From a virus: a DNA stretch of 30,892 bases. The notes under the pieces were generated by a model. That model did no database searches. It saw only the letters and a list, made by a program, of their open reading frames with translations, and was not told the origin of the DNA. The position numbers and the translations under genes are program-made. The stretch covers positions 1-30,892 of the IMG/VR virus record IMGVR_UViG_3300015171_000021. One strand, written 5' to 3'. Below are positions 2,300 through 25,001 of the stretch, one piece after another (position 1 is the stretch's first letter; every line of letters starts with the position of its first letter).

Positions 2300-2474
2300 C
2301 CCAGACCCCGATACGCAGCACGTCTACCCGCTGAACGACCTGATCGAGCACGAACTCGAAGGCGACGACTGCATCTGCGGCCCCGAAGTCGAGCCAATCA
2401 AGCGCGAGGACGGGTCGATCGGGTGGCTCGTGACGCACCACTCGCTCGACGGCCGCGAGCGGCACGAAGCCTGA
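2292..2474 (+). CDS. Conserved small protein between terS and terL
   Basis: 60 residues, ATG start overlapping terS. It has the recognisable pattern Y-P-L-N-D-L-x-E-H, then D-D-C-x-C-G-P, then W-x-V-x-H-H-S-x-D-G-R-E. Very similar small acidic proteins sit at this exact position in many actinophages and related prophages. The Cys-x-Cys and the two His could bind a metal, but no function is established. The stop overlaps the terL start (TGATG), so it is translationally coupled to terL. Confidence 0.75.
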   Translation: MPNPDPDTQHVYPLNDLIEHELEGDDCICGPEVEPIKREDGSIGWLVTHHSLDGRERHEA

Positions 2475-4051
2475 TGGCGACGCTCGTCGACGCACGCAAG
2501 CGGCGCATCCTCGAAGACGCGGGCCTCTGGAACCTCGGCCAGCACATCAGGAGCGACCCGGTACGCGCCGCGAGCGAGCTACTCGGCAGGGACCTCTGGT
2601 CGAAGCAGGCGGAGATCGTGCTGTCCACGTTCGCGCACGACTACACGTGGGTGCGGAGCGGGAACGGGATCGGGAAGACGTTCACGGCCGGGACGGTCGC
2701 GCCACTGTTCGCGCTCGCGTTCCCGGGCTCGACGGTGCTCACGACGGCGCCGACCGGCCGTCAGGTGCGCGAGGTGTTGTGGCGCGAGATCCGCGTCGCG
2801 TGGAACGCCGCGCGCGACGCGATCCAGCGCGCAATGGATGGCCTCGGCGTCGCGTACGAACCTCTGCCGGAGGCGAAGCAGGTCGGGATCGACCTGGCCG
2901 AGGACTGGTTCATGCTCGGCCAGTCCACGGACGAGCCGGAGCGGTTCGCGGGGTACCACTCCGACCACCTGCTGCTGATCGTCGACGAGGCCAGCGGCGT
3001 GAGCGACAAGATCTACGAAGCGGCCGAGGGCAACCTCACGAGCGGCGGCGCTCACCTGCTCGCGATCGGCAACCCCACGCAGACCGCGGGCCAGTTCTAC
3101 CGCGCGTTCACGGTCGAGGCCAACGTCGAGTCGAGCAACCACGTGCACATCAGCGTGCTCGACTCGCCCCTGTTCACCGGCGAGCCCGTAAACGACAGGG
3201 CCCGGCGGCACCTGACGAAGCCCGAGTGGGTCGAGAGCAGGCGCGCCGCGTGGGGCGAGGATCACCCGCTCTACCAGGTACGCGTCCTCGGGAACTTCCC
3301 GAGCACCTCGGACGTGACGATGATCAGCCTCGGCGACGTCGAGCGCGCGCAGCGCCGCGAACCCGACCCGGCCGCGACGATGCTCGACGCTCACCCCGTG
3401 CTCTCGATCGACGTCGCGCGCTACGGCAGTGACGAGACGAGTATCGCGCAGCTCCGCGGCGACGAGATCAGCATCGTCGACTCCTACAGCGGCCGCTCCA
3501 CGACCGAGACGGTCGGGATCGCGATTCGGCACGCGCAGCGGCTCCTCGACGACAACGCGCTGAGCGTCACGATCGTCGTCGACGACGTCGGCGTCGGCGG
3601 CGGCGTGACCGACCAGCTCGTCGAGATCGTCTCGGATCGCGTCAGCATCGTGCCGTTCAACGGCGGGTCGAAACCGATCGACGAGGAGCACTACCTCAAC
3701 CGCCGCAGCGAGGCGTGGCACCAGTTCAGCCTGGCCCTCGACGAGTACGTGATCCTCCGCGACGACCCGGTCACGGGGCGGCCTGACGAGCAGCTCACGG
3801 CCGACCTGGTCGCGCCCGAGTACAAGTTCGACTCGCGCGGACGGATGGTGCTGGAGCCGAAGGCGGACACGAAGAAGCGCCTCAACGGCCGCTCGCCGGA
3901 TCGGGGTGACGCGGTCGTGATGCTCCTCGACGTAGGCGCCCCGAGCCGCGCGGCGATCGAGGAGCACCTCGCGGTCGCTCAGGCCAACGCGGGCCGCGAA
4001 CCACGCGGCGAGATCAGCAGCCGCCGCGCCCCGTGGGAGGAGCGCTGGTGA
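2474..4051 (+). CDS. terL: Terminase large subunit (packaging ATPase and nuclease)
   Basis: 525 residues from ATG in TGATG overlap. It is the motor that pumps DNA into the prohead and cuts concatemers. The N-terminal ATPase has Walker A GNGIGKT (63-69), Walker B LLLIVDE (166-172) and coupling motif IGNPT (198-202). The C-terminal RNase H-like nuclease has the three expected acidic positions: D313 (SIDVARYG), D370/D371 (VVDDVGVG) and D479 (DRGDAV). Length is normal and all key residues are present, so the protein should be active. The stop overlaps the GTG of the following small gene. An upstream in-frame start at 2423 would overlap the small gene fully and is not favoured. Confidence 0.96.
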   Translation: MATLVDARKRRILEDAGLWNLGQHIRSDPVRAASELLGRDLWSKQAEIVLSTFAHDYTWVRSGNGIGKTFTAGTVAPLFALAFPGSTVLTTAPTGRQVREVLWREIRVAWNAARDAIQRAMDGLGVAYEPLPEAKQVGIDLAEDWFMLGQSTDEPERFAGYHSDHLLLIVDEASGVSDKIYEAAEGNLTSGGAHLLAIGNPTQTAGQFYRAFTVEANVESSNHVHISVLDSPLFTGEPVNDRARRHLTKPEWVESRRAAWGEDHPLYQVRVLGNFPSTSDVTMISLGDVERAQRREPDPAATMLDAHPVLSIDVARYGSDETSIAQLRGDEISIVDSYSGRSTTETVGIAIRHAQRLLDDNALSVTIVVDDVGVGGGVTDQLVEIVSDRVSIVPFNGGSKPIDEEHYLNRRSEAWHQFSLALDEYVILRDDPVTGRPDEQLTADLVAPEYKFDSRGRMVLEPKADTKKRLNGRSPDRGDAVVMLLDVGAPSRAAIEEHLAVAQANAGREPRGEISSRRAPWEERW

Positions 4052-4961: not shown

Positions 4962-5221
4962 GTCCGCACCCGTTCGTCAGCCACCCGCGTGACCCGGCCG
5001 AGATGCGCATCGCGGCGCGCATCGAGAGCGGCCGCAACGGGCACGACCCGCTGCCCGCGTTCCTGGTGTTCCCGGTCGTGTACTGGAACGTCGAAGGCGA
5101 CGAGCTGAGCCGCGAGGGGATCCGCGCGCGTGACCTTTCGAGCGCGATCGCGATCGCGGGGAATCGGTCGAAGCGGCACCGTGAGGCGACCGGCTTCCAC
5201 GTCGGCCGGGGCCAGCGATGA
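4958..5221 (+). CDS. Small hypothetical protein
   Basis: 87 residues, GTG overlapping the upstream TGA. It has a central PAFLVFPVVYWNVEGDELS strand region and a helical segment (ARDLSSAIAIAGNRSKRH), an alpha/beta mini-domain with no family I recognise. The 4-nt overlaps on both sides make it part of the same polycistronic unit. Confidence 0.55.
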   Translation: MSPHPFVSHPRDPAEMRIAARIESGRNGHDPLPAFLVFPVVYWNVEGDELSREGIRARDLSSAIAIAGNRSKRHREATGFHVGRGQR

Positions 5222-5421
5222 GCACGTGGAACGTGATCCGCGAGATCGTGGGCGACTTCCCGGGCGGCACGGAGCGCGAGCTTGTCCTCGTCGACCTATC
5301 TCGCGACCGCGCCGTCGACGAGGCTCAGCGCCTCTGGGACGTCGACCCGGGCGACCCGTACCTCGACGTGCGGTTCGTCGTCGAGTCGAGCGACGGGCTC
5401 CGGCGCCTCGAACTACGGTAG
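5218..5421 (+). CDS. Small hypothetical protein
   Basis: 67 residues, ATG in ATGA overlap. Acidic and Asp-rich, alternating strand-like (ELVLVDLS, DVRFVVES) and helical (RAVDEAQRLW) segments. No family recognised. It is the last gene before the second palindromic module, which overlaps or directly follows its stop. Confidence 0.55.
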   Translation: MSTWNVIREIVGDFPGGTERELVLVDLSRDRAVDEAQRLWDVDPGDPYLDVRFVVESSDGLRRLELR

Positions 5422-5465
5422 GCTACGATCGTACGCAACCACTGATCCCATCCCTCGGAAGGGGA
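5422..5465 (+). promoter_or_regulatory. Palindromic promoter/operator module B with leader and RBS
   Basis: GCTACGATCGTACG at 5422-5435 is identical to 4342-4355 and again holds the palindrome TACGATCGTA (5424-5433). The leader also contains ATCCC and the identical Shine-Dalgarno GGAAGGGGA (5457-5465), placed just before the ATG at 5469. The palindrome-to-ATG distance is close to that of module A. Confidence 0.6.
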
Positions 5466-5468
5466 ACC

Positions 5469-5870
5469 ATGAGCACTCGCATGCAGACCGTCCGCGCCAT
5501 CGTCATCCCGGCCAACGCGGAGGAGCCGATCCACGAAATCGGCCTGACCGGAAACCCGAGCGACGGGTACCTCGACGCGCTTCAGGCGCTCGTCGGCGGC
5601 CTGATCGAGGCCGTTCCCTGGAGCGGCGCGCCGGACGACGTGACCCTGTACGTGAACGAGGAGGGCAAGTTCGACCAGGACGCGAACCCGCGGAACGATC
5701 GCGCGACGCGCATGCTGCGCCCGGGAACGGGCCTGTTCCTCGGCGACTGGATCGCGGGCGCGCTCGTGATCGCGGGCCTCGACCGCCGTACGGGCGAGAC
5801 GGTCAGCCTGAGCGACGACGTGGACGTGAGCGTCGTCGAGGAGTGGTGCGGCCGCGAGGTGCGCGCGTAA
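5469..5870 (+). CDS. DUF3846-type protein
   Basis: 133 residues, ATG directly behind the GGAAGGGGA ribosome site of module B. It matches the DUF3846 layout: an N-terminal strand (VRAIVIPANAE) followed by LDALQALVGGLIEAV, a TLYVNEEGK stretch, N-P-R-N-D-R-A-T, and a F-L-G-D-W-I-A-G-A-L-V-I-A-G segment. DUF3846 proteins are small, common in actinobacterial mobile elements and phages, and of unknown function. It heads a second small operon in the island; the stop overlaps the next start (TAATG). Confidence 0.8.
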   Translation: MSTRMQTVRAIVIPANAEEPIHEIGLTGNPSDGYLDALQALVGGLIEAVPWSGAPDDVTLYVNEEGKFDQDANPRNDRATRMLRPGTGLFLGDWIAGALVIAGLDRRTGETVSLSDDVDVSVVEEWCGREVRA

Positions 5871-7540: not shown

Positions 7541-7566
7541 GCTGTCGATCGCCTCCGCCGGGGTGA

Positions 7567-7652
7567 GGGCACCGCGGCGTGGGCGCCAGAGCCTCCCGCC
7601 GAACGCCGACCGCCCCCTCGCAATCGCGGGCGGAGCGTGCGCCGCGGTGCCC
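7567..7652 (+). repeat. 13-bp inverted repeat with a 60-nt interior, upstream of portal
   Basis: GGGCACCGCGGCG (7567-7579) and CGCCGCGGTGCCC (7640-7652) are perfect reverse complements. The 170-nt gap between the membrane protein gene and portal (7501-7670) holds this repeat, the terminator and the candidate -10; I see no gene in it. The right arm ends 6 nt before the -10 box, so the structure could control portal transcription. Confidence 0.5.
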
Positions 7653-7658
7653 GACCGA

Positions 7659-7664
7659 TATCCT
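7659..7664 (+). promoter_or_regulatory. Candidate leaderless -10 box for portal
   Basis: TATCCT, 6 nt before ATG 7671 (spacer CCACTC), no Shine-Dalgarno. It is one of the best matches to the recurring TAnnCT signature of this window. Confidence 0.55.
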
Positions 7665-7670
7665 CCACTC

Positions 7671-9140
7671 ATGGCTGCACCGACGCTGCTAGGGGACGTA
7701 CCGCAGACCACGAAGCCCACCGTCGAGATCGGCGCTCTCTACCCGTACGGCGTTCACGGGTTCGGCGGCGCGTCGCTCGTCGACATGGACGAGTACCTCC
7801 CCGACCTCGTGTGGCCCTGGTCGGTGCGGGTGTACGCGGAGATGGTCAACGACGCGCAGGTCGACTCGCTCTATACCGGCCTATGCTGGCCGATCCGCCA
7901 GTTCCGGTGGAGCCTGGAGCGCGGCGACGCGGACGCCGCGCTGACGCAGCTGATCGCGGACGACCTCGGCCTGCCCGTCGTGCTCGACACAGGCGCGGAC
8001 GCGACGCCGCCGCCGCAGCGCCGCGACCGCCTATTCGACCACGCGCAGCACCTCACCGACTCCCTCCGCGGCCTCGTCTATGGGCACTACTACTTCGAGC
8101 TGGTCGGCGAGATCATCGACGGGCAGTGGCGCCTCGACCGCGCCGCCGCGCGCCCGCCGAAGACGATCAACCAGTTGAAGGTCACGGAGCACGGCGAGCT
8201 GCTCGCGATCGTCCAGAACCTCACGATCCACGCCGAGCCGATCCCCGCATCCTGCCTGGCCGCGTACGTGTGGGATCGGGAGGGCGCGAACTGGTTCGGC
8301 CGCTCGCTGATGCGCAGCCTGTACGGCCCCTGGCGGCTCAAGCAGCGCCTGCTGAACGTTGACCGGATGCGGCACGAGCGCAACTCGATGGGCGTCCCGA
8401 TCGTCGGCACGAAGCCGGGCGCGACGAAGGGCGAGATCGACCAGGCGAACCAGCTCGCGGCCGCGTACAGGGCGGGCGACGCCGCGGGCGGCGCGCTCCC
8501 CGACGGGTACAGCCTGACGCTCCAGGGCGTCCAGGGCTCGACCACGAACCCGCTCGAATCGGTCAAGTATTACGACGAGCTGATGGCGCGCCGCATGTTC
8601 CAGATGATCACGATGCTCGGCTCCACGGCGACCGGGAACCGGGCGCTGGGCGACGCGTTCCGCGACCTGCTCGACAACGCGCTGCGCACGATCGCGGACT
8701 GGTACGTCGACCACACGGAGCGCGAGATCATCCAGCGCTGGTTCGAATGGAACGCGGGCCCCGGCGAGCCCACGCCTCACCTCGTGTACGACCCGCAGCC
8801 CGACGTCTCCATGGAGCTACTGAGCACGATGGTCAAGGACGGCGTCGTGCAGCCCGACGACACGCTGGAGAACTGGGTGCGGGATATGCATCACATTCCG
8901 GCGCGCACGGAGACGCGCGCGGAGCAGCTCGCGGCCGAGGCGCCGACGCCGCCCACCCCGACGATCGTGCCGCCCGGGAGCGCGAGCGTCACGCCCGGCG
9001 GGATCGCCGCGAGCGAACCGGCGAGGCTCGGACAGCCGCTGCTCGACCGCGACGGGCGCGCCGTCCTGACCGCCACGGGCGAGCCCGTCCTCATCGGCGT
9101 CGACGGCAGGGCGTTCAGTGCCTCCGAACGCCACGGGTAG
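7671..9140 (+). CDS. Portal protein (DUF935/Mu gp29-like)
   Basis: 489 residues from ATG. The portal forms the dodecameric ring at the head vertex through which DNA enters. Evidence is the family-typical core: an early W-P-I-R-x-F-R-W-S-L-E block, the Y-G-H-Y-Y-F-E-L-V-G-E-I segment, and W-F-G-R-S-L-M-R followed by W-R-L-K and R-x-E-R-N-S-M-G-V-P, closely resembling DUF935 portals. The C-terminus is Pro/Thr-rich and flexible. The frame is open upstream to 7563, but that extension lies in the inverted repeat; the ATG behind the TATCCT box is preferred. It overlaps the minor head gene by 23 nt. Confidence 0.88.
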   Translation: MAAPTLLGDVPQTTKPTVEIGALYPYGVHGFGGASLVDMDEYLPDLVWPWSVRVYAEMVNDAQVDSLYTGLCWPIRQFRWSLERGDADAALTQLIADDLGLPVVLDTGADATPPPQRRDRLFDHAQHLTDSLRGLVYGHYYFELVGEIIDGQWRLDRAAARPPKTINQLKVTEHGELLAIVQNLTIHAEPIPASCLAAYVWDREGANWFGRSLMRSLYGPWRLKQRLLNVDRMRHERNSMGVPIVGTKPGATKGEIDQANQLAAAYRAGDAAGGALPDGYSLTLQGVQGSTTNPLESVKYYDELMARRMFQMITMLGSTATGNRALGDAFRDLLDNALRTIADWYVDHTEREIIQRWFEWNAGPGEPTPHLVYDPQPDVSMELLSTMVKDGVVQPDDTLENWVRDMHHIPARTETRAEQLAAEAPTPPTPTIVPPGSASVTPGGIAASEPARLGQPLLDRDGRAVLTATGEPVLIGVDGRAFSASERHG

Positions 9141-11007
9141 CCCGAGCGCGCTCACTACCTGGCCTTTCAGGCGCTTCCCCACGATCGTGGAGGCCACGGC
9201 CCGCGTCGACTACCCGGCGCTCAGCGGAGCGTTCGACGACGCCACGGCGCACGCCGTGAGCGCCTGGGCGGGGATCCGCGCGCGGCACGTCAAGAGCCTG
9301 CTCGCGCAGGCCGCGACGCTGATCCCGGACGCCGCGACGACCGACGTGTCGTGGATCGACCATCTCGCGCTCGACCCGCAATCCGCGGAGCCGATCTACG
9401 AAGCGATCGTGTGGGCGGTCGCGCTAGGCCAGGCGGGCGCCCTCCAGGAGGCACGCGACCAGGGCGCGACGCTACCCGCGGCGCCGACCCCGGTCGCGGT
9501 AGCGGACGCCGCGGACGCACACGGCCGCGCACGGGGCCTAGAGCGCCTGCTCGCAGTCCAGCTCCTCCAGGTCGTGAAGCGCGAAGGGATGCGCCTCGCG
9601 GGGACGCGCACGAGCGCGCTCCTCGCGCTCAGCCGCGCGCTCGGCGACGCGCCGACCCGCGGCGAGCGGAACACGCTGAAAGCCGGGTCGACCGGAGGCG
9701 TGAACGAAGGCCGCCTCTCCGTCTTCCGGATGATCCGGATCGGCACGCCCGGCATCCAGGCCGCGGAGGGCGACCCGCCGCCGCTCAGCGAGCAGGTCGG
9801 CTACCTCTACGCCACGGAACTACTCGACGACCGCACGTGCGACCCGTGCGGCGCGATCGACGGGACGCAGTACGCGTCGCTCGACGACGCGTCGAACGAC
9901 TATCCGGGCCTGGGCGGCGGGTACGTGTGGTGCGACGGCAGGGAGAACTGCCGCGGCAGTCTCGTCGTCGTGTACGCCGACGTCGCGGCGCCGACCGTCG
10001 ACGGCGGGTCGAGCCAAGCGCAGGCCATCGCCGACCGCGTCGCGCGCGAGCAGATCCAGCAGGACGCGATAGACCGGCGCGCGGCCGCGGACGCGCGCGA
10101 TGCGTTCCGCGGCATCCCGCCACCCAGCGGCGAGCAGCCTCTCCCGCCCGGCGCGCCGCCGCAGACCCCGCCGCCTACTCCGCCGAGCGGACTCGTCGTG
10201 CAGGCGCTCCGCGACGTCTGGGCCGGTACCCGCGTCGACGTTACGAGCAGCGTCCCGTCCTGGGACGCGGAACGGCTCACGGGGATGATGCAGAGCGAGA
10301 AGCTCACTCAACTCGGACTCCGCGTTGAAGCGAACAGCCGCGGTAGTATCAGCGGCAGCAACACCGCGATCGGCGCGACGATCCGCGGCGCCGACAACCG
10401 ATCGCTGGGCACCCTGAGCCGAGCAATCGGGAAAACCGGCCCGGACTCGTTCAAGGCCGAGCACGGCTCGTTCCACCTCGAACCCGAGCTACAAGGAAAG
10501 GGCATCGCGCGAGAGCTGCTCGCGAGCCATGTCCGCGAGTACGACGCTGCTGGCATCACGCGCGTCGAGGTGACCGCAGCGGGCGACAACGGGCGGTATA
10601 CGTGGGCGCGATTCGGCTTCGACTTCAACTTCCCGAGCGCCGCCGAACTCGATCCAAACTTCCCGGCCCTCCCACCGCACGACCTCACCTCGATGCGCGA
10701 AAGCTTCCGCACCCAGCTCTACCAGCGCGTGATCGACACGCTGCCGAAAACGATCGACGTGGGCGGCACGCAAGTCGTGCCCGGCCCCGAACTCGCGCTC
10801 CGCACTACCTATCCGGAGTCCATGAAGCTGATCGACGAGGCGACGCACACATGGGATTTCGCGGGCCTGCTGATCAACGAGAACGGCGTCGAGATGACCG
10901 GGAAAGAAATGATGCTGAAAGGCCCCGGCTGGTACGGATCGCTCGACCTCACGCCCGGCAGCGAGGGCCGCGCGATCTTCGACGCCTACACGCGCCAATC
11001 GAGATAG
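9118..11007 (+). CDS. MuF-type minor head protein fused to a GNAT-like acetyltransferase domain
   Basis: 629 residues from GTG inside the portal gene. Residues 1-290 are a MuF/SPP1 gp7-type head morphogenesis domain ending in the characteristic CDPC (241-244), D-G-T-x-Y and GGGYVWCDGRENCRG (267-280) block. A Pro-rich linker (334-357) follows. Residues about 395-505 look like a GNAT N-acetyltransferase: acetyl-CoA-binding loop QGKGIAREL (459-467), strand VEVTA, then NGRYTWARFGFDF (491-503). The last 120 residues are an unassigned extension. In MuF polymorphic toxins the variable C-terminus after such a linker is an effector delivered with the virion. The 3' part is less GC-extreme (GAA, AAA, TCA codons), suggesting separate ancestry. 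The GNAT call is by motif only. Confidence 0.82.
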   Translation: MPPNATGSPSALTTWPFRRFPTIVEATARVDYPALSGAFDDATAHAVSAWAGIRARHVKSLLAQAATLIPDAATTDVSWIDHLALDPQSAEPIYEAIVWAVALGQAGALQEARDQGATLPAAPTPVAVADAADAHGRARGLERLLAVQLLQVVKREGMRLAGTRTSALLALSRALGDAPTRGERNTLKAGSTGGVNEGRLSVFRMIRIGTPGIQAAEGDPPPLSEQVGYLYATELLDDRTCDPCGAIDGTQYASLDDASNDYPGLGGGYVWCDGRENCRGSLVVVYADVAAPTVDGGSSQAQAIADRVAREQIQQDAIDRRAAADARDAFRGIPPPSGEQPLPPGAPPQTPPPTPPSGLVVQALRDVWAGTRVDVTSSVPSWDAERLTGMMQSEKLTQLGLRVEANSRGSISGSNTAIGATIRGADNRSLGTLSRAIGKTGPDSFKAEHGSFHLEPELQGKGIARELLASHVREYDAAGITRVEVTAAGDNGRYTWARFGFDFNFPSAAELDPNFPALPPHDLTSMRESFRTQLYQRVIDTLPKTIDVGGTQVVPGPELALRTTYPESMKLIDEATHTWDFAGLLINENGVEMTGKEMMLKGPGWYGSLDLTPGSEGRAIFDAYTRQSR

Positions 11008-11016: not shown

Positions 11017-11157
11017 ATGCCCGACGCTCCGATTGAGGATCCCGGCCCGACTGACGAGACGCGAGAGCAGGAACGCGCGTGGCAGGTCGAGCGCACGAAC
11101 GCGCTCCGCGCGAAGGCGGGCCTGCCCCCGCTTCCGGAGCCGCCCCTCGCCCAGTAG
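11017..11157 (+). CDS. Small hydrophilic protein
   Basis: 46 residues, ATG start behind TAGGCT. An acidic, Pro-rich N-terminus is followed by an amphipathic helix (TREQERAWQVERTNALRAKA) and a Pro-rich tail. No family recognised. It could be an antitoxin-like or accessory partner of the preceding MuF-GNAT protein, but there is no sequence support beyond adjacency. Confidence 0.5.
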   Translation: MPDAPIEDPGPTDETREQERAWQVERTNALRAKAGLPPLPEPPLAQ

Positions 11158-11170: not shown

Positions 11171-11386
11171 ATGGCGACGATCTACGTGACCCTCACGAGC
11201 GGCGCCGAGCGCGCCGCGTGGCGCGACGGCACTCTGCTCCTGAAGGGCAGCGCGCGGCTCATCGCAGACGCCATCGTCGCCTCCCCCACCGCCGAGCCCG
11301 CTGGATGGGCGACGCTCCCACAAGCCTGGGCGCTGCTACGCGTGATCTACCCGCAGGCGCAGCTACGCACCGACGAGCTACCGTAA
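11171..11386 (+). CDS. Small hypothetical protein
   Basis: 71 residues from ATG. The beginning alternates as strands (MATIYVTLTSGAERAAW, DGTLLLKGSARLI), followed by a helical half with an AWALLRVIYP segment. It resembles a small single-domain alpha/beta protein; no family recognised. No Shine-Dalgarno is evident. Its 3' end contains the candidate promoter for the next gene. Confidence 0.5.
   Translation: MATIYVTLTSGAERAAWRDGTLLLKGSARLIADAIVASPTAEPAGWATLPQAWALLRVIYPQAQLRTDELP
11379..11384 (+). promoter_or_regulatory. Candidate leaderless -10 box
   Basis: TACCGT, 7 nt before ATG 11392 (spacer AACCGCT); its last base starts the upstream TAA stop. Confidence 0.4.
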
Positions 11387-11734: not shown

Positions 11735-12029
11735 GTGGCGAGAACGAAGTACGAGCCAGAGTCGGAGGTCTGGCACGACACCTGCCCATGGTGTGGTGGG
11801 TTTTGAGGATCTCCAGATAGGCGTTGAGCGCGAGTGGTCGTGTGATTTGTGGTGTAGGACCTGTTCGGGCTGGAGCCGCCTGATGCGGTACCCGGATGGG
11901 CTCGTGAGGCTGCGCGCGCCGCGCGCGCGGATCGACAAGCGCCGCGAGGCCCATCCGCCGAAAGCGCACGCGGAGGAAAACGGCAGTCAGAATGCGGGTG
12001 ATGACGGTCGAACTTGTCACGATCCCTGA
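11735..12029 (+). CDS. Frameshifted zinc-ribbon gene (programmed +1 shift or broken)
   Basis: The frame from GTG 11735 gives 23 residues ending TCPWCGGF and stops at TGA 11804-11806. The +1 frame continues at once with EDLQIGVEREWSCDLWCRTC and runs to TGA 12027-12029. Joined, the 97-residue product has a four-plus-cysteine zinc ribbon (CPWC ... CDLWCRTC), which neither half has alone. The junction GGG-TTT-TGA-G allows tRNA-Phe to slip from TTT to the overlapping TTT in the +1 frame, with a slow stop codon in the A site and a GGTGGG purine run just upstream, like the prfB recoding site. A four-T indel or sequencing error explains it equally. Codons here (ATA, GTT, TGT, TTG, AGG) are unlike the neighbours. 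The 3' end overlaps the protease gene. Confidence 0.55.
11988..11993 (+). promoter_or_regulatory. Candidate leaderless -10 box for the capsid operon
   Basis: CAGAAT, 7 nt before ATG 12001. It shares AATGCGGGTG with the site in front of the holin-like gene (CACAAT, 29743-29748). The first base deviates from T. Confidence 0.4.
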
Positions 12030-13146
12030 CGTCGAGCTGGCCGCGACCGGTACTCACCACCTGAAGACCGGCGACACGGTAATCGACCGCGACGACCTCG
12101 TGGCCGCGCTCGAAGCGGCGGAGCAGGACCCGGCGGTGCTCTATCCCCGCGCGAAGCTCGCGCACGAGAAGCAGCTCGACACGGGCGAGCCGAGCTTCGG
12201 TGTGGCCGCGAACCTGCGCCTCCGCGACGATCCCGACGGATCCACGAAGCTCCTGGGCGACTGGGTCGGCTGTCCGAAGTGGCTCGCGGACGTCGCGCCC
12301 GCGGCGCTCCCGAACCGCTCGATTGAGGGTGAGCGGAACTGGACGAGTCCGAGCGGGAAGACGCACCGCCTGGTGATTAGCGCGTTCGGCCTGCTGGGCG
12401 TCACGATGCCCGGCATCAAGGGCCTGAAAGACCTGGCGACCTGGTACGGGCCGAGCACGCCGAAAGGCGTGATCCTGGCCGCGTACGGCGACGCCACCCA
12501 GATCGACGATCCGAAGAAGGAGAGCATCGTGCCGTTCCCGAAGGCGTACATGGAGAAGCTCGGCCTCGCCGAGGACGCGGCCGACGACGTCGTGCTCGCG
12601 AAGCTCGACGAGCTGGAGAAGGCCGCGAAGGGCGACCCGGACGCGATCAAGCTCCAGGTCGACGCGGCCGTCGCCGCAGCCGCCGACGCCGCGCGCGTGA
12701 AGGCCGAGACGGACGCTCAGGCCGCCGCGCAGTCGAAGATCGACGACGCGCGCAAGGCCGCGCTCGACGAGCTGAAGGAGCAGGGCCTGACCGTCGTCGA
12801 CGGCGAGGCGCTCGCGAAGCTCCAGGCCGACGCGACCGCGGGCGCCGAGATCGCCGCGAGCGCGGCTGACGCGAAGCGCAAGGGCGTGATCGAGGCCGCG
12901 ATCGGTAAGGGCAAGATCGCCCCGAGCCGTCGCGAGCATTTCGTGAGCGCGCTCGAAAGTGGCGCGATCGACGAGGCCACGATCGACGCGCTGCCCGAGA
13001 ACGTCGTGCCCGTCGCTCAGCGCGGCGCGACCGAGGACGCGCTCGTCGCGAGCCAGGGCGACGCTTCGGGCCTCGGGATGCCCGAGTCGTGGTACAGCGA
13101 CGCCGAGCTGAAGGTACTCCGGGAAGCCGGACGGCTACCCGCGTAG
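12001..13146 (+). CDS. Prohead protease with C-terminal scaffold (Mu gpI-like)
   Basis: 381 residues. The N-terminal half (about 1-160) follows the layout of Mu I-type and HK97-fold head maturation proteases: KLAHEKQ (H55), then FGVAANLRL, a DW-x-x-C-P-K-W-L block, and NRSIEGE with S107. H55 and S107 are the candidate catalytic His/Ser pair; this is by analogy. From about 195 to 300 the protein is Ala/Lys/Asp/Glu-rich coiled coil, the expected internal scaffold, and the C-terminus (about 300-381) may bind capsid. So protease and scaffold are one chain, as in Mu. ATG 11992 is in frame and possible, but ATG 12001 has the -10-like box at the right distance. Confidence 0.8.
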   Translation: MTVELVTIPDVELAATGTHHLKTGDTVIDRDDLVAALEAAEQDPAVLYPRAKLAHEKQLDTGEPSFGVAANLRLRDDPDGSTKLLGDWVGCPKWLADVAPAALPNRSIEGERNWTSPSGKTHRLVISAFGLLGVTMPGIKGLKDLATWYGPSTPKGVILAAYGDATQIDDPKKESIVPFPKAYMEKLGLAEDAADDVVLAKLDELEKAAKGDPDAIKLQVDAAVAAAADAARVKAETDAQAAAQSKIDDARKAALDELKEQGLTVVDGEALAKLQADATAGAEIAASAADAKRKGVIEAAIGKGKIAPSRREHFVSALESGAIDEATIDALPENVVPVAQRGATEDALVASQGDASGLGMPESWYSDAELKVLREAGRLPA

Positions 13147-13611: not shown

Positions 13612-14505
13612 ATGCCCACCATGCAGCACCCCCTGGGGCCGCCAACGCTTAGCGGTACCCAGGTCACCGTCGACGTCAGCCTCCAGTCGCCGACGCGGAT
13701 CACGCACTACCTGTCCGATATCACGCTGCAGAAGTTCCTGAGCGAGAAGGTGTTCTCGTCTGACGGCGGCGTGAGTGGCGGCGCGGTGATCTACGACCAG
13801 CTGGACACGAACCAGCTCTACCCGACGCGCATGCCGGAGCCGGTCGCGCCGGGCAGCGAGTTCCCGAGCATCCAGGACGCTCGGATCCCGCCCAAGGTCG
13901 CGACCGTCGCCAAGTGGGGCGCGAAATTCTTCATCACGGACGAAGCTCGCGACCGCAACGACGTGTCCCTGTTCACCAACTCGCTGCGCCGCCTCGGGAA
14001 CGGGATGGTGAAGACGATCGACACCGTCGCGGTCGCGACGATGGAAGCGGAGTTCACGAACCGGCCGGGGCAGGTCATCGCCGGGCACTCGTGGAGCACC
14101 GTCATGCCGATCGGCTCGACGCCCGCGAACCCGCGGATCTGGCCGGGAGCGGACTTCCAGGCCGCGCTGCAGCTCACGCAGACGCAAGAGCTGGGCTACG
14201 TGCTCGACACGGTGCTGCTGAACCCGGTCGACGCGAGCCAGCTCGCGTTCGTGTACGGCGCGACGAACCTCACCGAGGCACTCGGCATGTACGGCCTGGA
14301 GCGGTTCGTGTCGAACCGCGTCCCGGCGGGGCAGTGCTACGTGATCGCCGCGCAGGTGCCGGGCGGGATGCGCATCGAGTCGCCACTGGGCACGATCACG
14401 TGGCGCGAGGAGGAGATCCAGTCGACGTGGATCCAGGCGAGCGTGCGGCCCGTGTTCTACATCGACGAGCCGCTCGCGATGGTCAAGATCACGGGGATCG
14501 CGTAG
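13612..14505 (+). CDS. Major capsid protein
   Basis: 297 residues, ATG with AGGAG (13602-13606) as ribosome site. The sequence has the features of an HK97-fold coat protein of the Mu/actinophage type: an N-terminal arm, a P-x-x-A-T-V-A-K-W-G-A-K-F-F-I-T-D-E spine-helix entry, a long helix (RNDVSLFTNSLRRLGNGMVK), an A-domain-like Q-L-T-Q-T-Q-E-L-G-Y segment and a final strand (VFYIDEPLAMVKITGI). No cleavage site can be fixed. It lies after protease and decoration genes and before connector genes, as expected. Confidence 0.85.
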   Translation: MPTMQHPLGPPTLSGTQVTVDVSLQSPTRITHYLSDITLQKFLSEKVFSSDGGVSGGAVIYDQLDTNQLYPTRMPEPVAPGSEFPSIQDARIPPKVATVAKWGAKFFITDEARDRNDVSLFTNSLRRLGNGMVKTIDTVAVATMEAEFTNRPGQVIAGHSWSTVMPIGSTPANPRIWPGADFQAALQLTQTQELGYVLDTVLLNPVDASQLAFVYGATNLTEALGMYGLERFVSNRVPAGQCYVIAAQVPGGMRIESPLGTITWREEEIQSTWIQASVRPVFYIDEPLAMVKITGIA

Positions 14506-22829: not shown

Positions 22830-25001
22830 ATGGCGAACACGACGAGCCCGTTCGCGCCCGTCGATCCGCTTACGGGCCTGCCGATCGTCACGCCCGACCC
22901 GAGCGCTCCGCCGCGCGGGATTCCGTACAAGCTGCCCGGCCTCGGGAAGAATCGGAAGCGCACGCTGCTCCTGGCGCTGCCCGGCGACGCGGCGTGGATA
23001 CCGCCGAGCGCGAACGGCCTCGCGAGCCTCGTCGTCGGCGACCACTGGCTCCGCTACGACATTCACAATCGGATCACCGCGGCCGCGGTCGAGAGCACGA
23101 TCACGGGCGCGAGCACCGTGAAGCTCAGCATCCACGACCCCGAGCTACGGCTCCTGAACAGTGGCCTCCTGCAGCAGCGCTGCCGGATCAGGCTCGGCGG
23201 GTACGTGTTCGAGCTGGTCAGGGTCAAGAAGCAGGGCTACGTACTCGCCTTGGAGTTCGAGGACGCGGTCGTCGCGGAGCTACGCACCGCGGCCCGGTCG
23301 GGCTACAAGACCTGGAAGGCGGGCACGATCAGCGCCGTCGGCGCGATCCGCTGGTTCCTGAGCGAGAAGGCGAAGGGCGCGGACGGCAAGATGCACGACC
23401 TGCCGGGCGTGACGCTCTACGCGCCCGTCGACCCGGGCGGCGGCGCGGGCGCCGCGATACCTCAGCACTCGACGAGCGTCGCCGCGTCGAACGCGGCCGT
23501 CGCGCGCGACCCCGGCCTCGCGCACAAGAACGTGAAGGTCAAGGGCGCGGCCGCGACCAGCCAGCAGACGCAGAACATCAACGTCGTCCTGAAGACGATC
23601 CTGGCGTTCTCGCCGCGCCCGACGACCGCGGAACTAGTCATGGCCGTGATGTGCGTCACCGCCGAGACGAGCGCGGGCAATCCCAGCGGCGGGTCGGGCT
23701 CCAGCGTCGGGATCTTCCAGCAGACGCCCGAGGGCGGTTACACCGGGTACGACCGTACGGATATCGTGCGCGCCACTCAGGAGTTCTATAAGCGCCTGCA
23801 CAAGATCACGACGAATCCGGCGTATAAGGGCACGCCGCTCTACGCGATGGTGCAGGCCGTTCAGGGTAGCGGCGCCGGGAAGGCGTCGAACGGCGCGTCG
23901 AACTACGGCCCCTGGGAGGGCGAGGCGAAGAACACCGTCGGCCTGTTCCTCGGCCCCGACGCGGCCCGCTACGGCCTGGGCGTGAACGCGCCCGACCTGC
24001 TCGGCAAGAACCCCGCGAGCAACAAGCCGCACACGTTCCACCGCGGCTCGCCGCACACGCCCGAGGACTCCTGGACGGCCATGCAGCGCATCGCGCGCGA
24101 AGTCAACTACAGGTGCTTCGTGGTCGGCGAGGTGCTCTACTTCATGGGCGACCGGCGACTGCTCGCGGGCGAGCCGCGCCTGTCGCTGAACATGGGCGTC
24201 GACGGCGTGCACAAGCTCGACTACGACATTGACGTCGGCAAGCGCGTGAGCACCGTCGACCTCGAAGTCGACACGAAGGCGTGGAGCTGCCCGCCGGGCA
24301 GCGTGATCGACCTGCACGACCTCGGCCCCGCGAACGGGTCGTGGCTCGTCGACACCGTCAGCGCCGACCTGAAGAAGCCGAGCCTGCTGACCGTGAAGCT
24401 CACGCGGCCGAAGGTGCCGCTGAAGGAGGCCGCCGACCCGACGCCGACGTCGAGCACCGGCAGCGTGGTCGCGAGCGACGGTAGCGTCCTGCCGACGTCG
24501 GGGCCGTTCGCGCCGTCAAGCCCGCTCGCGCCGGGCGGCGGCGGAGCGAGCGCCCCGGGTACCGGCGGCGGATCGTTCTCGGCACTGATCACGGGCGCGA
24601 AGTACGTCGGGCCCGACCAGGGCATCGACTTCACGGGAGCGGGGCCGCTGTTCGCGCTCGCGGACGGCGTCGTCACGCGCGTCGCGCCGGGCGGTACCGG
24701 CTGGCCCGGTATCGGCGCGATCCTCGTCTACCAGATGACCAGCGGCTCGCGCAGCGGCCAGTACGTCTACATGGCCGAGGACATTACGATCCAGCCGGGC
24801 ATCGGGAAGGGCGTGCGGATCAAGAAGGGGCAGCAGATCGCGTACGCGACTGGCTCCGGCCAGGCGCCGGGTATCGAAGTGGGCTTCGCGCAGGATGGCA
24901 ACGGCGCCGCGTTCGGGACGATTTATGACGGGAAGCAGGGCGGGCCGCCGCCCGTCCACGGGTGGGACATGCAGGCGTTCGTCCAGGGCCTCTCGAAGTA
25001 G
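22830..25001 (+). CDS. Large baseplate hub with lysozyme-like and degenerate M23-like domains
   Basis: 723 residues, ATG adjoining the LysM stop. The outer parts (about 40-200 and 410-530) have the strand pattern of gpD/gp27-type hub proteins (STVKLSIHDPELRLL, YVFELVRVKKQGY; later STVDLEVDTKAWSCPPGS, SWLVDTVSADLKKPSLLTV). Residues about 255-375 form an inserted helical domain with AETSAGNPSGGSGSSVGIF (278-296), reminiscent of lysozyme/transglycosylase folds, with E279 the candidate acid. After a Gly/Pro/Ser linker, 590-690 resembles an M23/lysostaphin-type fold (DQGIDFTG, ADGVVTRVAPG, IKKGQQIAYATGSG, IEVGFA), but the zinc ligands are mostly absent: D in place of the first His, IEVGF in place of HLHF. 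It probably helps penetrate the wall during injection. Confidence 0.75.
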   Translation: MANTTSPFAPVDPLTGLPIVTPDPSAPPRGIPYKLPGLGKNRKRTLLLALPGDAAWIPPSANGLASLVVGDHWLRYDIHNRITAAAVESTITGASTVKLSIHDPELRLLNSGLLQQRCRIRLGGYVFELVRVKKQGYVLALEFEDAVVAELRTAARSGYKTWKAGTISAVGAIRWFLSEKAKGADGKMHDLPGVTLYAPVDPGGGAGAAIPQHSTSVAASNAAVARDPGLAHKNVKVKGAAATSQQTQNINVVLKTILAFSPRPTTAELVMAVMCVTAETSAGNPSGGSGSSVGIFQQTPEGGYTGYDRTDIVRATQEFYKRLHKITTNPAYKGTPLYAMVQAVQGSGAGKASNGASNYGPWEGEAKNTVGLFLGPDAARYGLGVNAPDLLGKNPASNKPHTFHRGSPHTPEDSWTAMQRIAREVNYRCFVVGEVLYFMGDRRLLAGEPRLSLNMGVDGVHKLDYDIDVGKRVSTVDLEVDTKAWSCPPGSVIDLHDLGPANGSWLVDTVSADLKKPSLLTVKLTRPKVPLKEAADPTPTSSTGSVVASDGSVLPTSGPFAPSSPLAPGGGGASAPGTGGGSFSALITGAKYVGPDQGIDFTGAGPLFALADGVVTRVAPGGTGWPGIGAILVYQMTSGSRSGQYVYMAEDITIQPGIGKGVRIKKGQQIAYATGSGQAPGIEVGFAQDGNGAAFGTIYDGKQGGPPPVHGWDMQAFVQGLSK

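What the first reader, a model, noticed from the sequence alone, without database searches (positions are those of the whole stretch)
9118..11007. MuF minor head protein fused to a GNAT-like domain, resembling a MuF polymorphic toxin
One 629-residue chain joins a canonical MuF head domain (CDPC and GGGYVWCDGRENC block), a Pro-rich linker (334-357) and a domain with GNAT signatures (QGKGIAREL at 459-467, then strand VEVTA and NGRYTWARFGFDF), plus 120 unassigned residues. MuF polymorphic toxins described for temperate phages have exactly this head-linker-effector layout. A virion-carried acetyltransferase could modify a host protein, tRNA or drug after injection. The less GC-biased 3' half suggests modular acquisition. 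The GNAT assignment and toxin role are inference.
Basis: partly seen in the sequence, partly recalled or inferred. Interest (0 to 1): 0.75.

Follow-up and report, generated by a model that had tools for sequence, protein, structure and literature searches.

The report
Phage head protein carrying acetyltransferase effector
A virus of bacteria carries, fused to one of its capsid proteins, an acetyltransferase-type enzyme domain that relatives swap for other toxin domains and that elsewhere comes paired with a dedicated small protein, so it is probably delivered into the bacterium at infection to modify a host target.

Summary
Window 9118-11007 encodes a 629-aa MuF-type head protein, a Pro-rich linker and a GNAT-fold domain (AlphaFold2 pLDDT 84; Foldseek matches are acetyltransferases). 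The "120 unassigned residues" are not separate: GNAT plus tail (ending GK..L.G..W.G) form one ~200-aa module. I found this module in 72 viral contigs (61 non-redundant). Carriers include MuF, portal-MuF and ADP-ribosyltransferase-containing proteins and, in actinomycetes, giant WXG100-type proteins. Relatives of this MuF domain end short, or carry a papain-fold toxin (beside an annotated immunity gene), metallopeptidase-like regions or GNAT: true C-terminal swapping. In the largest GNAT clade a 60-90-aa, mostly acidic partner lies beside the module; a search seeded only with that partner returned 24 loci, all with GNAT 8-69 nt upstream. The window has no partner of the three families I modelled, only two unassigned small ORFs. 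Best reading: a virion-carried acetyltransferase effector of the polymorphic-toxin/polyvalent-protein kind. Enzyme activity, injection, target and toxicity are inferred. "Temperate-phage MuF toxin" is only partly supported: lifestyle is unknown, and the module also occurs in SPO1-like phages. I rate it a new variant of a known kind, with an apparently undescribed effector-partner pair.

The parts
9118..11007 (+). MuF-GNAT fusion gene, 629 aa
9118..10110 (+). MuF-type minor head part, residues 1-331 (CDPC ... GGGYVWCDGRENCRG block 9685-10011)
   Evidence: PHROG 595 E 4.6e-4; 45-56% identity over residues 214-295 to Arthrobacter phage MuF-like proteins; alignment A7
10117..10188 (+). Pro-rich linker, residues 334-357, disordered in the model
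10321..10632 (+). GNAT core, about residues 402-505
   Evidence: AlphaFold2 strands/helices; Foldseek PDB; A3 alignment
10492..10509 (+). CoA pyrophosphate loop signature QGKGIA (residues 459-464); Q/R in 51, G460 in 53, G462 in 51 of 57
10588..10620 (+). Family signature N-G-R-Y-T-W-A-R-F-G-F (residues 491-501): G492, W496, G500 invariant, Y494 56/57
10633..10950 (+). C-terminal tail domain of the module (residues 506-611) with signature GK-x3-L-x-G-xx-W-x-G (595-607); W605 56/57
11017..11157 (+). 46-aa ORF in the slot where relatives have the small partner gene; unrelated to partner families A-C; weak Pfam HIND-motif hit
11171..11386 (+). 71-aa ORF, GC3 0.87, no family match; possible but unproven partner gene
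7563..9140 (+). Mu-type portal protein, directly upstream
   Evidence: PF06074 E 2e-32
2423..4051 (+). terminase large subunit
   Evidence: PHROG 2 E 1e-29
11992..13146 (+). Mu-I-like head maturation protease
13612..14505 (+). major capsid protein (relatives mainly in actinobacterial phages)

Best explanation
The gene is a minor head protein of a tailed phage whose C-terminus is a swappable effector: a GNAT-type acetyltransferase with its own C-terminal tail domain. The MuF part builds the protein into the capsid near the portal in a few copies. At infection the effector leaves with the DNA and acetylates an amine on a cytoplasmic target of the bacterium (more likely a protein than tRNA), helping take-over, overriding defence, or inhibiting the cell. 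In related loci a small, mostly acidic helical protein encoded beside the module probably keeps the enzyme in check in the producing cell. Shown: fold, module boundaries, carriers, swapping, partner linkage in relatives. Inferred: catalytic activity, packaging, injection, target, neutralisation by the partner.
For: GNAT fold by AlphaFold2/Foldseek. A CoA-loop signature and an invariant G-x-Y-x-W-A-x-x-G-F block conserved over 57 divergent sequences imply selection for a working site. The module recurs in 72 viral contigs (all own-HMM E < 1e-16) on different carriers: Phage_Mu_F in 19 of 60, ADP-ribosyltransferase domain in 6 of 60, portal, ParB, NUDIX, 2H phosphoesterase. It also occurs as three tandem copies on a Glycomyces minor-capsid protein and in a portal-MuF-GNAT chain of Actinomadura, and in giant actinomycete proteins, two of which were confirmed to have WXG100-like N-termini and one of these also a GT4-conflict domain. 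Relatives of this MuF domain carry the papain-fold toxin domain PF15644 at the same place, with a neighbour annotated 'immunity protein' in phage Brent. In 74 MuF relatives the C-termini are polymorphic. The GNAT half has lower GC3 than every control window. A partner-only search gave 24 loci, all with GNAT 8-69 nt upstream; partner type follows GNAT clade.
Against: No experiment. In the window itself no partner of families A-C is found. At the usual catalytic-Tyr position of GNATs this family appears to have Trp (motif comparison from memory, not structure-checked), so chemistry may differ or be lost. Packaging and injection are not tested. Some cultured relatives have the module at the N-terminus or middle of the head protein (R7M, Lucjan), less typical of a detachable toxin.
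Confidence: 0.72

Rival explanations
1. It is an antibacterial MuF polymorphic toxin in the strict sense: the delivered GNAT (for example a TacT-like acetylator of aminoacyl-tRNA) stops growth of non-lysogens, and lysogens are protected by an immunity gene.
For: C-terminal swapping with a known toxin domain plus annotated immunity gene in the same MuF family; sharing with WXG100-type proteins; small partner gene tightly linked to the module in a clade that includes isolate-genome (prophage-like) contigs; Foldseek hits include the toxins TacT2 (ranks 4-5), GmvT and KacT.
Against: The toxin hits are mixed among generic GNATs; the window module is acidic (pI 5.4, net -6), unlike an expected tRNA binder; SPO1-like phages carry it without an A-C partner; no known immunity gene in the window.
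Confidence: 0.3
2. It is an early host-takeover or counter-defence effector of the polyvalent-protein kind, modifying host RNA polymerase or a defence protein, not meant to kill.
For: Occurrence in SPO1-like phages and co-occurrence with ADP-ribosyltransferase, ParB, NUDIX and 2H domains typical of polyvalent proteins (PMC5512222 places polyvalent GNATs in the RimI-like, protein-modifying clade). Precedent: the phage GNAT Rac mediates cleavage of the host RNAP alpha subunit (PMC7552054).
Against: No target evidence; Rac is not shown here to be a virion protein or a relative; the tightly linked partner gene suggests the activity must be restrained, closer to toxin logic.
Confidence: 0.45
3. The domain acts on the virion itself: it acetylates phage structural proteins or is a structural ornament of the head-neck region.
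For: It is fused to a head protein, and in R7M and Lucjan it lies N-terminal or internal; in some loci the partner domain is the N-terminus of the next gene product (L044, L022).
Against: 33 of 74 relatives of this MuF end within 40 aa of the block and others carry enzyme-like domains at that place, so it is dispensable for MuF function; WXG100-type proteins carry it with no virion.
Confidence: 0.12
4. Degenerate passenger: an inactive former GNAT kept by chance.
For: Weak Pfam scores, Trp in place of the usual Tyr, and divergence of the window copy (long tree branch).
Against: Open frame of 274 codons, conserved CoA loop and family signatures, confident fold.
Confidence: 0.08

Closest known systems
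MuF polymorphic toxins (Jamet et al. 2017, PMC5576092)
   Same: MuF gene directly after the portal; N-terminal MuF, linker, exchangeable C-terminal effector; payload shared with another delivery family; small ORFs downstream.
   Different: The paper's main text mentions neither GNAT nor acetyltransferase (supplementary tables not read); those toxins are mostly nucleases, metallopeptidases, ARTs and RelA-like, in temperate phages mainly of Firmicutes. This phage has an actinobacterial-type capsid and unknown lifestyle.
GNAT domains in polyvalent proteins (Iyer et al. 2017, PMC5512222)
   Same: GNATs deployed in phage virion-linked multidomain proteins; one of the two families typically neighbours an ART domain, as 6 of 60 carriers do here.
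   Different: No MuF-GNAT fusion, tail signature or partner gene appears in the passages read. Whether this is one of those two families could not be tested: their exemplar sequences were not compared.
Papain-fold (Gln_amidase, PF15644) MuF proteins of Arthrobacter phages Brent, Bumble, Colucci
   Same: Same MuF domain family, Pro-rich linker, C-terminal effector, small following gene (annotated immunity protein in Brent).
   Different: Unrelated effector domain in place of GNAT.
GNAT toxins TacT, GmvT, KacT (aminoacyl-tRNA acetylators)
   Same: GNAT fold and a small partner protein (an antitoxin there).
   Different: Virion-fused with an extra tail domain, acidic module, Trp at the usual Tyr position, partner usually downstream; similarity is at generic fold level only.
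Phage GNAT Rac of phiKMV-like phages (PMC7552054)
   Same: Phage-encoded predicted GNAT acting on host machinery.
   Different: No head domain known; relation to this module not tested.

Membership tests
GNAT acetyltransferase fold | Characteristic alpha/beta GNAT fold | tested here: met
   AlphaFold2 pLDDT 84, pTM 0.78; Foldseek PDB hits mostly N-acetyltransferases
GNAT acetyltransferase fold | Acyl-CoA pyrophosphate loop Q/R-x-x-G-x-G/A | tested here: met
   QGKGIA at 459-464; Q/R in 51, G462 in 51 of 57
GNAT acetyltransferase fold | Pfam gathering score | tested here: not met
   PF13673/PF00583/PF13508 all below cut-off for the window; some relatives pass
GNAT acetyltransferase fold | Acetyl transfer activity | not testable with these tools
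   needs biochemistry; the usual Tyr position appears to be Trp
MuF minor head proteins | Gene directly downstream of portal in the packaging module | tested here: met
   portal 7563-9140 overlaps its start
MuF minor head proteins | Detectable MuF domain | tested here: inconclusive
   Pfam PF04233/PF06152 not hit; PHROG 595 E 4.6e-4; 50-56% identity to annotated MuF-like proteins over 57-66 aa; hhalign to Pfam-positive MuF rows not significant
MuF polymorphic toxins | Same N-terminal family with different C-terminal domains | tested here: met
   74 relatives: papain-fold, metallopeptidase-like, protease-like, GNAT, or no extension
MuF polymorphic toxins | Effector shared with another toxin-delivery family | tested here: met
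   same module in giant proteins with WXG100-like N-terminus (Pfam-confirmed in two, L095 and L107)
MuF polymorphic toxins | Immunity gene next to the toxin gene | tested here: inconclusive
   relatives: linked small partner, neutralising role untested; window: only unassigned 46- and 71-aa ORFs
MuF polymorphic toxins | Temperate phage | not testable with these tools
   window is a 30.9-kb record classed as a virus with no integrase or repressor among the genes scanned; family also in SPO1-like phages
MuF polymorphic toxins | Toxicity | not testable with these tools
   needs expression assay
Polyvalent-protein GNATs (Iyer 2017) | Membership of one of the two described GNAT families | not tested
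   exemplar sequences not compared

The most novel reading that the evidence does not exclude
The GNAT-tail module and its small partner form an undescribed effector-inhibitor pair, with an altered GNAT active site (Trp for Tyr). It would be used both by phages, as a virion-injected payload on head proteins in one to three copies, and by actinomycetes in WXG100-type secreted multidomain proteins: one acetyltransferase weapon with two delivery machines.
Probability: 0.4. Interest if true: 0.8.

Novelty: new variant of a known kind. Interest (0 to 1): 0.62.

Why it matters
MuF proteins are widespread in tailed phages, but what their C-terminal extensions do is mostly untested. This adds an acetyltransferase payload with clear boundaries, a conserved signature, and, in related loci, a tightly linked small partner, so both activity and neutralisation can be assayed with two genes. 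Sharing with WXG100-type bacterial proteins links phage-injected effectors with bacterial secreted toxins.

Tried and rejected
(1) Direct single-sequence searches for the window GNAT in viral and genome contigs found no relative; only the alignment A1, built from weak tblastn hits, opened the family. (2) Stand-alone GNATs of Vibrio and Aeromonas phages, and a Microcystis phage hit, were set aside as generic or chance matches. (3) tRNA-acetylating toxin as first choice: rejected because Foldseek hits are mixed and the module is acidic. (4) Small ORFs as generic head-module genes: less likely, because the partner-only search returned GNAT neighbours in 24 of 24 (about 18 contigs not seen before, several near-identical). 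(5) Partner families A-C in the window: HMM scores at noise level. (6) DNA patterns for the 46-aa ORF: no match. (7) Partner in cultured phages: tblastn found none. (8) 395 actinomycete-class genomes: GNAT module in 6, partner in 1; the partner scan scored few candidates per genome, so it is a lower bound. (9) The tree is the quick version with many open forks; the window's place is unsure.
Full report
OBSERVATION. The window is a 30,892-base record classed as a virus. ORF 9118-11007 (+, 629 aa) begins inside the end of a Mu-type portal gene (PF06074, E 2e-32) and is followed after small ORFs by a Mu-I-like protease, scaffold, major capsid protein and, further on, a contractile tail sheath. 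Capsid relatives are mainly in actinobacterial phages.

N-TERMINAL HALF. No Pfam MuF model is hit. The MuF assignment rests on PHROG 595 (E 4.6e-4, residues 229-294), 45-56% identity over the CxxC...GGY..C.G...CRG block to Arthrobacter phage proteins annotated MuF-like or capsid maturation protease, and gene position. It is a divergent MuF, not a canonical one.

C-TERMINAL HALF. Pfam GNAT models match below their cut-offs. Relatives found by tblastn (Exiguobacterium phage vB_EalM-132, Microbacterium phage Jera, Alteromonas phage R7M, and Micromonospora, Nocardia, Miltoncostaea and Skermanella plasmids) align over GNAT plus tail. The tail signature GK-x3-L-x-G-xx-W-x-G is shared across different carriers, so the '120 unassigned residues' are part of the effector module. 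A profile search of viral contigs gave 72 loci, all matching my HMM with E < 1e-16. On 57 rows G492, W496 and G500 of the window are invariant, Y494 and W605 are 56/57, and the CoA loop QGKGIA is conserved. AlphaFold2 on residues 340-629 gave pLDDT 84.3 and pTM 0.78. Foldseek against PDB returns mostly acetyltransferases, including the toxins TacT2, GmvT and KacT but also many non-toxins; against viral models the longest matches are Bacillus phage JL and CP-51 and uncultured-phage proteins.

ACTIVE SITE (inference). Compared by motif with RimI-type GNATs from memory, the invariant W496 sits where the catalytic Tyr normally is, with Y494 two residues before. This was not checked on coordinates.

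CARRIERS. Of 60 full-length carriers, 19 match Phage_Mu_F and 6 an ADP-ribosyltransferase exoenzyme domain; others have portal, VG15, ddrB-ParB, NUDIX, 2H and SAP domains. Bacterial genomes add a Glycomyces minor capsid protein with three tandem modules, an Actinomadura portal-MuF-GNAT chain, and giant proteins (about 1400-3350 aa) of Actinoplanes, Phytohabitans and Micromonospora. Two of the giants scanned (L095, L107) have a WXG100-like N-terminus (E 7e-13 and 3e-12), and two (L095, L096) a GT4-conflict domain.

SWAPPING. The three Arthrobacter MuF relatives examined carry, after a Pro-rich linker, the papain-fold toxin domain PF15644 (E about 2e-7) and a following ORF of 93-105 aa, annotated 'immunity protein' in Brent. 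A search with the MuF block gave 80 loci. In 74 where the block was located, 33 end within 40 aa, 9 have the papain-fold domain, 14 a long shared extension that reads like a fused protease region, several a zincin-like HE-x-G-H motif (by eye), and two GNAT (L158; L218, the same contig as L050). The window makes a third. GC3 of the window GNAT half (0.81-0.84 per 150 codons) is below all 80 control windows, consistent with separate acquisition.

PARTNER GENE. Scanning ORFs around the modules revealed recurrent small genes. Family A (about 60-90 aa when free-standing, motif H..W...SDYN.H.VD; pI mostly 4-6) lies 0-70 nt downstream in most clade-A loci; exceptions are L045 (directly upstream) and L057 (244 nt). 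Families B and C fill the same slot in other clades. In five loci (L022, L044, L059, L071, L132) the family-A domain is the N-terminus of a longer next ORF, and in Actinoplanes it is the C-terminal part of an ORF of about 300-460 aa near the giant gene. A search of viral contigs with family A alone returned 24 loci, every one with a GNAT module 8-69 nt upstream. Six of these contigs were already known from the GNAT search and several are near-identical, so independent cases number roughly a dozen. On the GNAT tree the three partner types form three separate groups (0 of 200 shuffles as low), though the tree is the quick version. AlphaFold2 predicts family A as a compact three-helix protein (pLDDT 95.5). 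No family library describes A, B or C. The window has none of A-C; its two following ORFs (46 and 71 aa) are unassigned, so an immunity gene there is possible but not shown.

MECHANISM. [quoted passage not shown]). The window protein most plausibly brings a GNAT effector into the cell by that route. Target unknown; a protein is favoured over tRNA because the module is acidic and published polyvalent GNATs are RimI-like (PMC5512222). Whether the outcome is growth inhibition, lysis-lysogeny bias, transcription takeover (as for the phage GNAT Rac, PMC7552054) or counter-defence cannot be decided here. Occurrence in SPO1-like phages favours take-over; swapping with a toxin and the linked partner favour a harmful activity that must be restrained.

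COMPARISON AND NOVELTY. It works like a MuF polymorphic toxin or polyvalent effector. Membership of the strict MuF-toxin class is unproven (lifestyle, immunity, toxicity). GNAT is not mentioned as a MuF payload in the Jamet main text, and literature searches found no MuF-GNAT report, with the limits of an open-access library and unread supplements. The module-partner pair appears undescribed.

LIMITS. All functional steps are inference; partner families were first found by inspection and then tested once; the window copy is among the more divergent members.

Noticed in passing
11017-11157: The 46-aa ORF after MuF-GNAT hits the Pfam HIND motif (eukaryotic Hub1-interacting peptide) at E 2.3e-6, above the gathering score; probably convergence on a 19-residue motif, but odd.
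   Followed up: partly
L094 1266-5603: Glycomyces minor capsid protein (Phage_min_cap2) with three tandem GNAT modules in one 1446-aa chain.
   Followed up: partly
L098 2304-5540: Actinomadura single chain joining portal, MuF and GNAT.
   Followed up: partly
L044 4606-6705; L022 4603-8280: Partner family A is fused to the N-terminus of a downstream virion-type protein; in L044 Pfam finds a 2H phosphoesterase domain.
   Followed up: no
L113 3550-3831, L111 3755-4072, L112 3686-3994: Small genes after papain-fold MuF proteins of Arthrobacter phages resemble each other; the one in Brent is annotated immunity protein.
   Followed up: partly
5130-5870: ORF with DUF3846 domain (E 5.5e-15) between terminase and portal.
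   Followed up: no
22830-25001: 723-aa tail protein with a weak M23 peptidase match near its C-terminus (E 0.0014), possibly a wall-penetrating enzyme.
   Followed up: no
L003 5356-9926: Two neighbouring Exiguobacterium phage proteins (one with GNAT, one with a zinc-peptidase-like HExxH motif) share an N-terminal segment (K.VQV.GKNG..F.RMQWVDP.TG), perhaps a common virion-targeting or processing signal.
   Followed up: no
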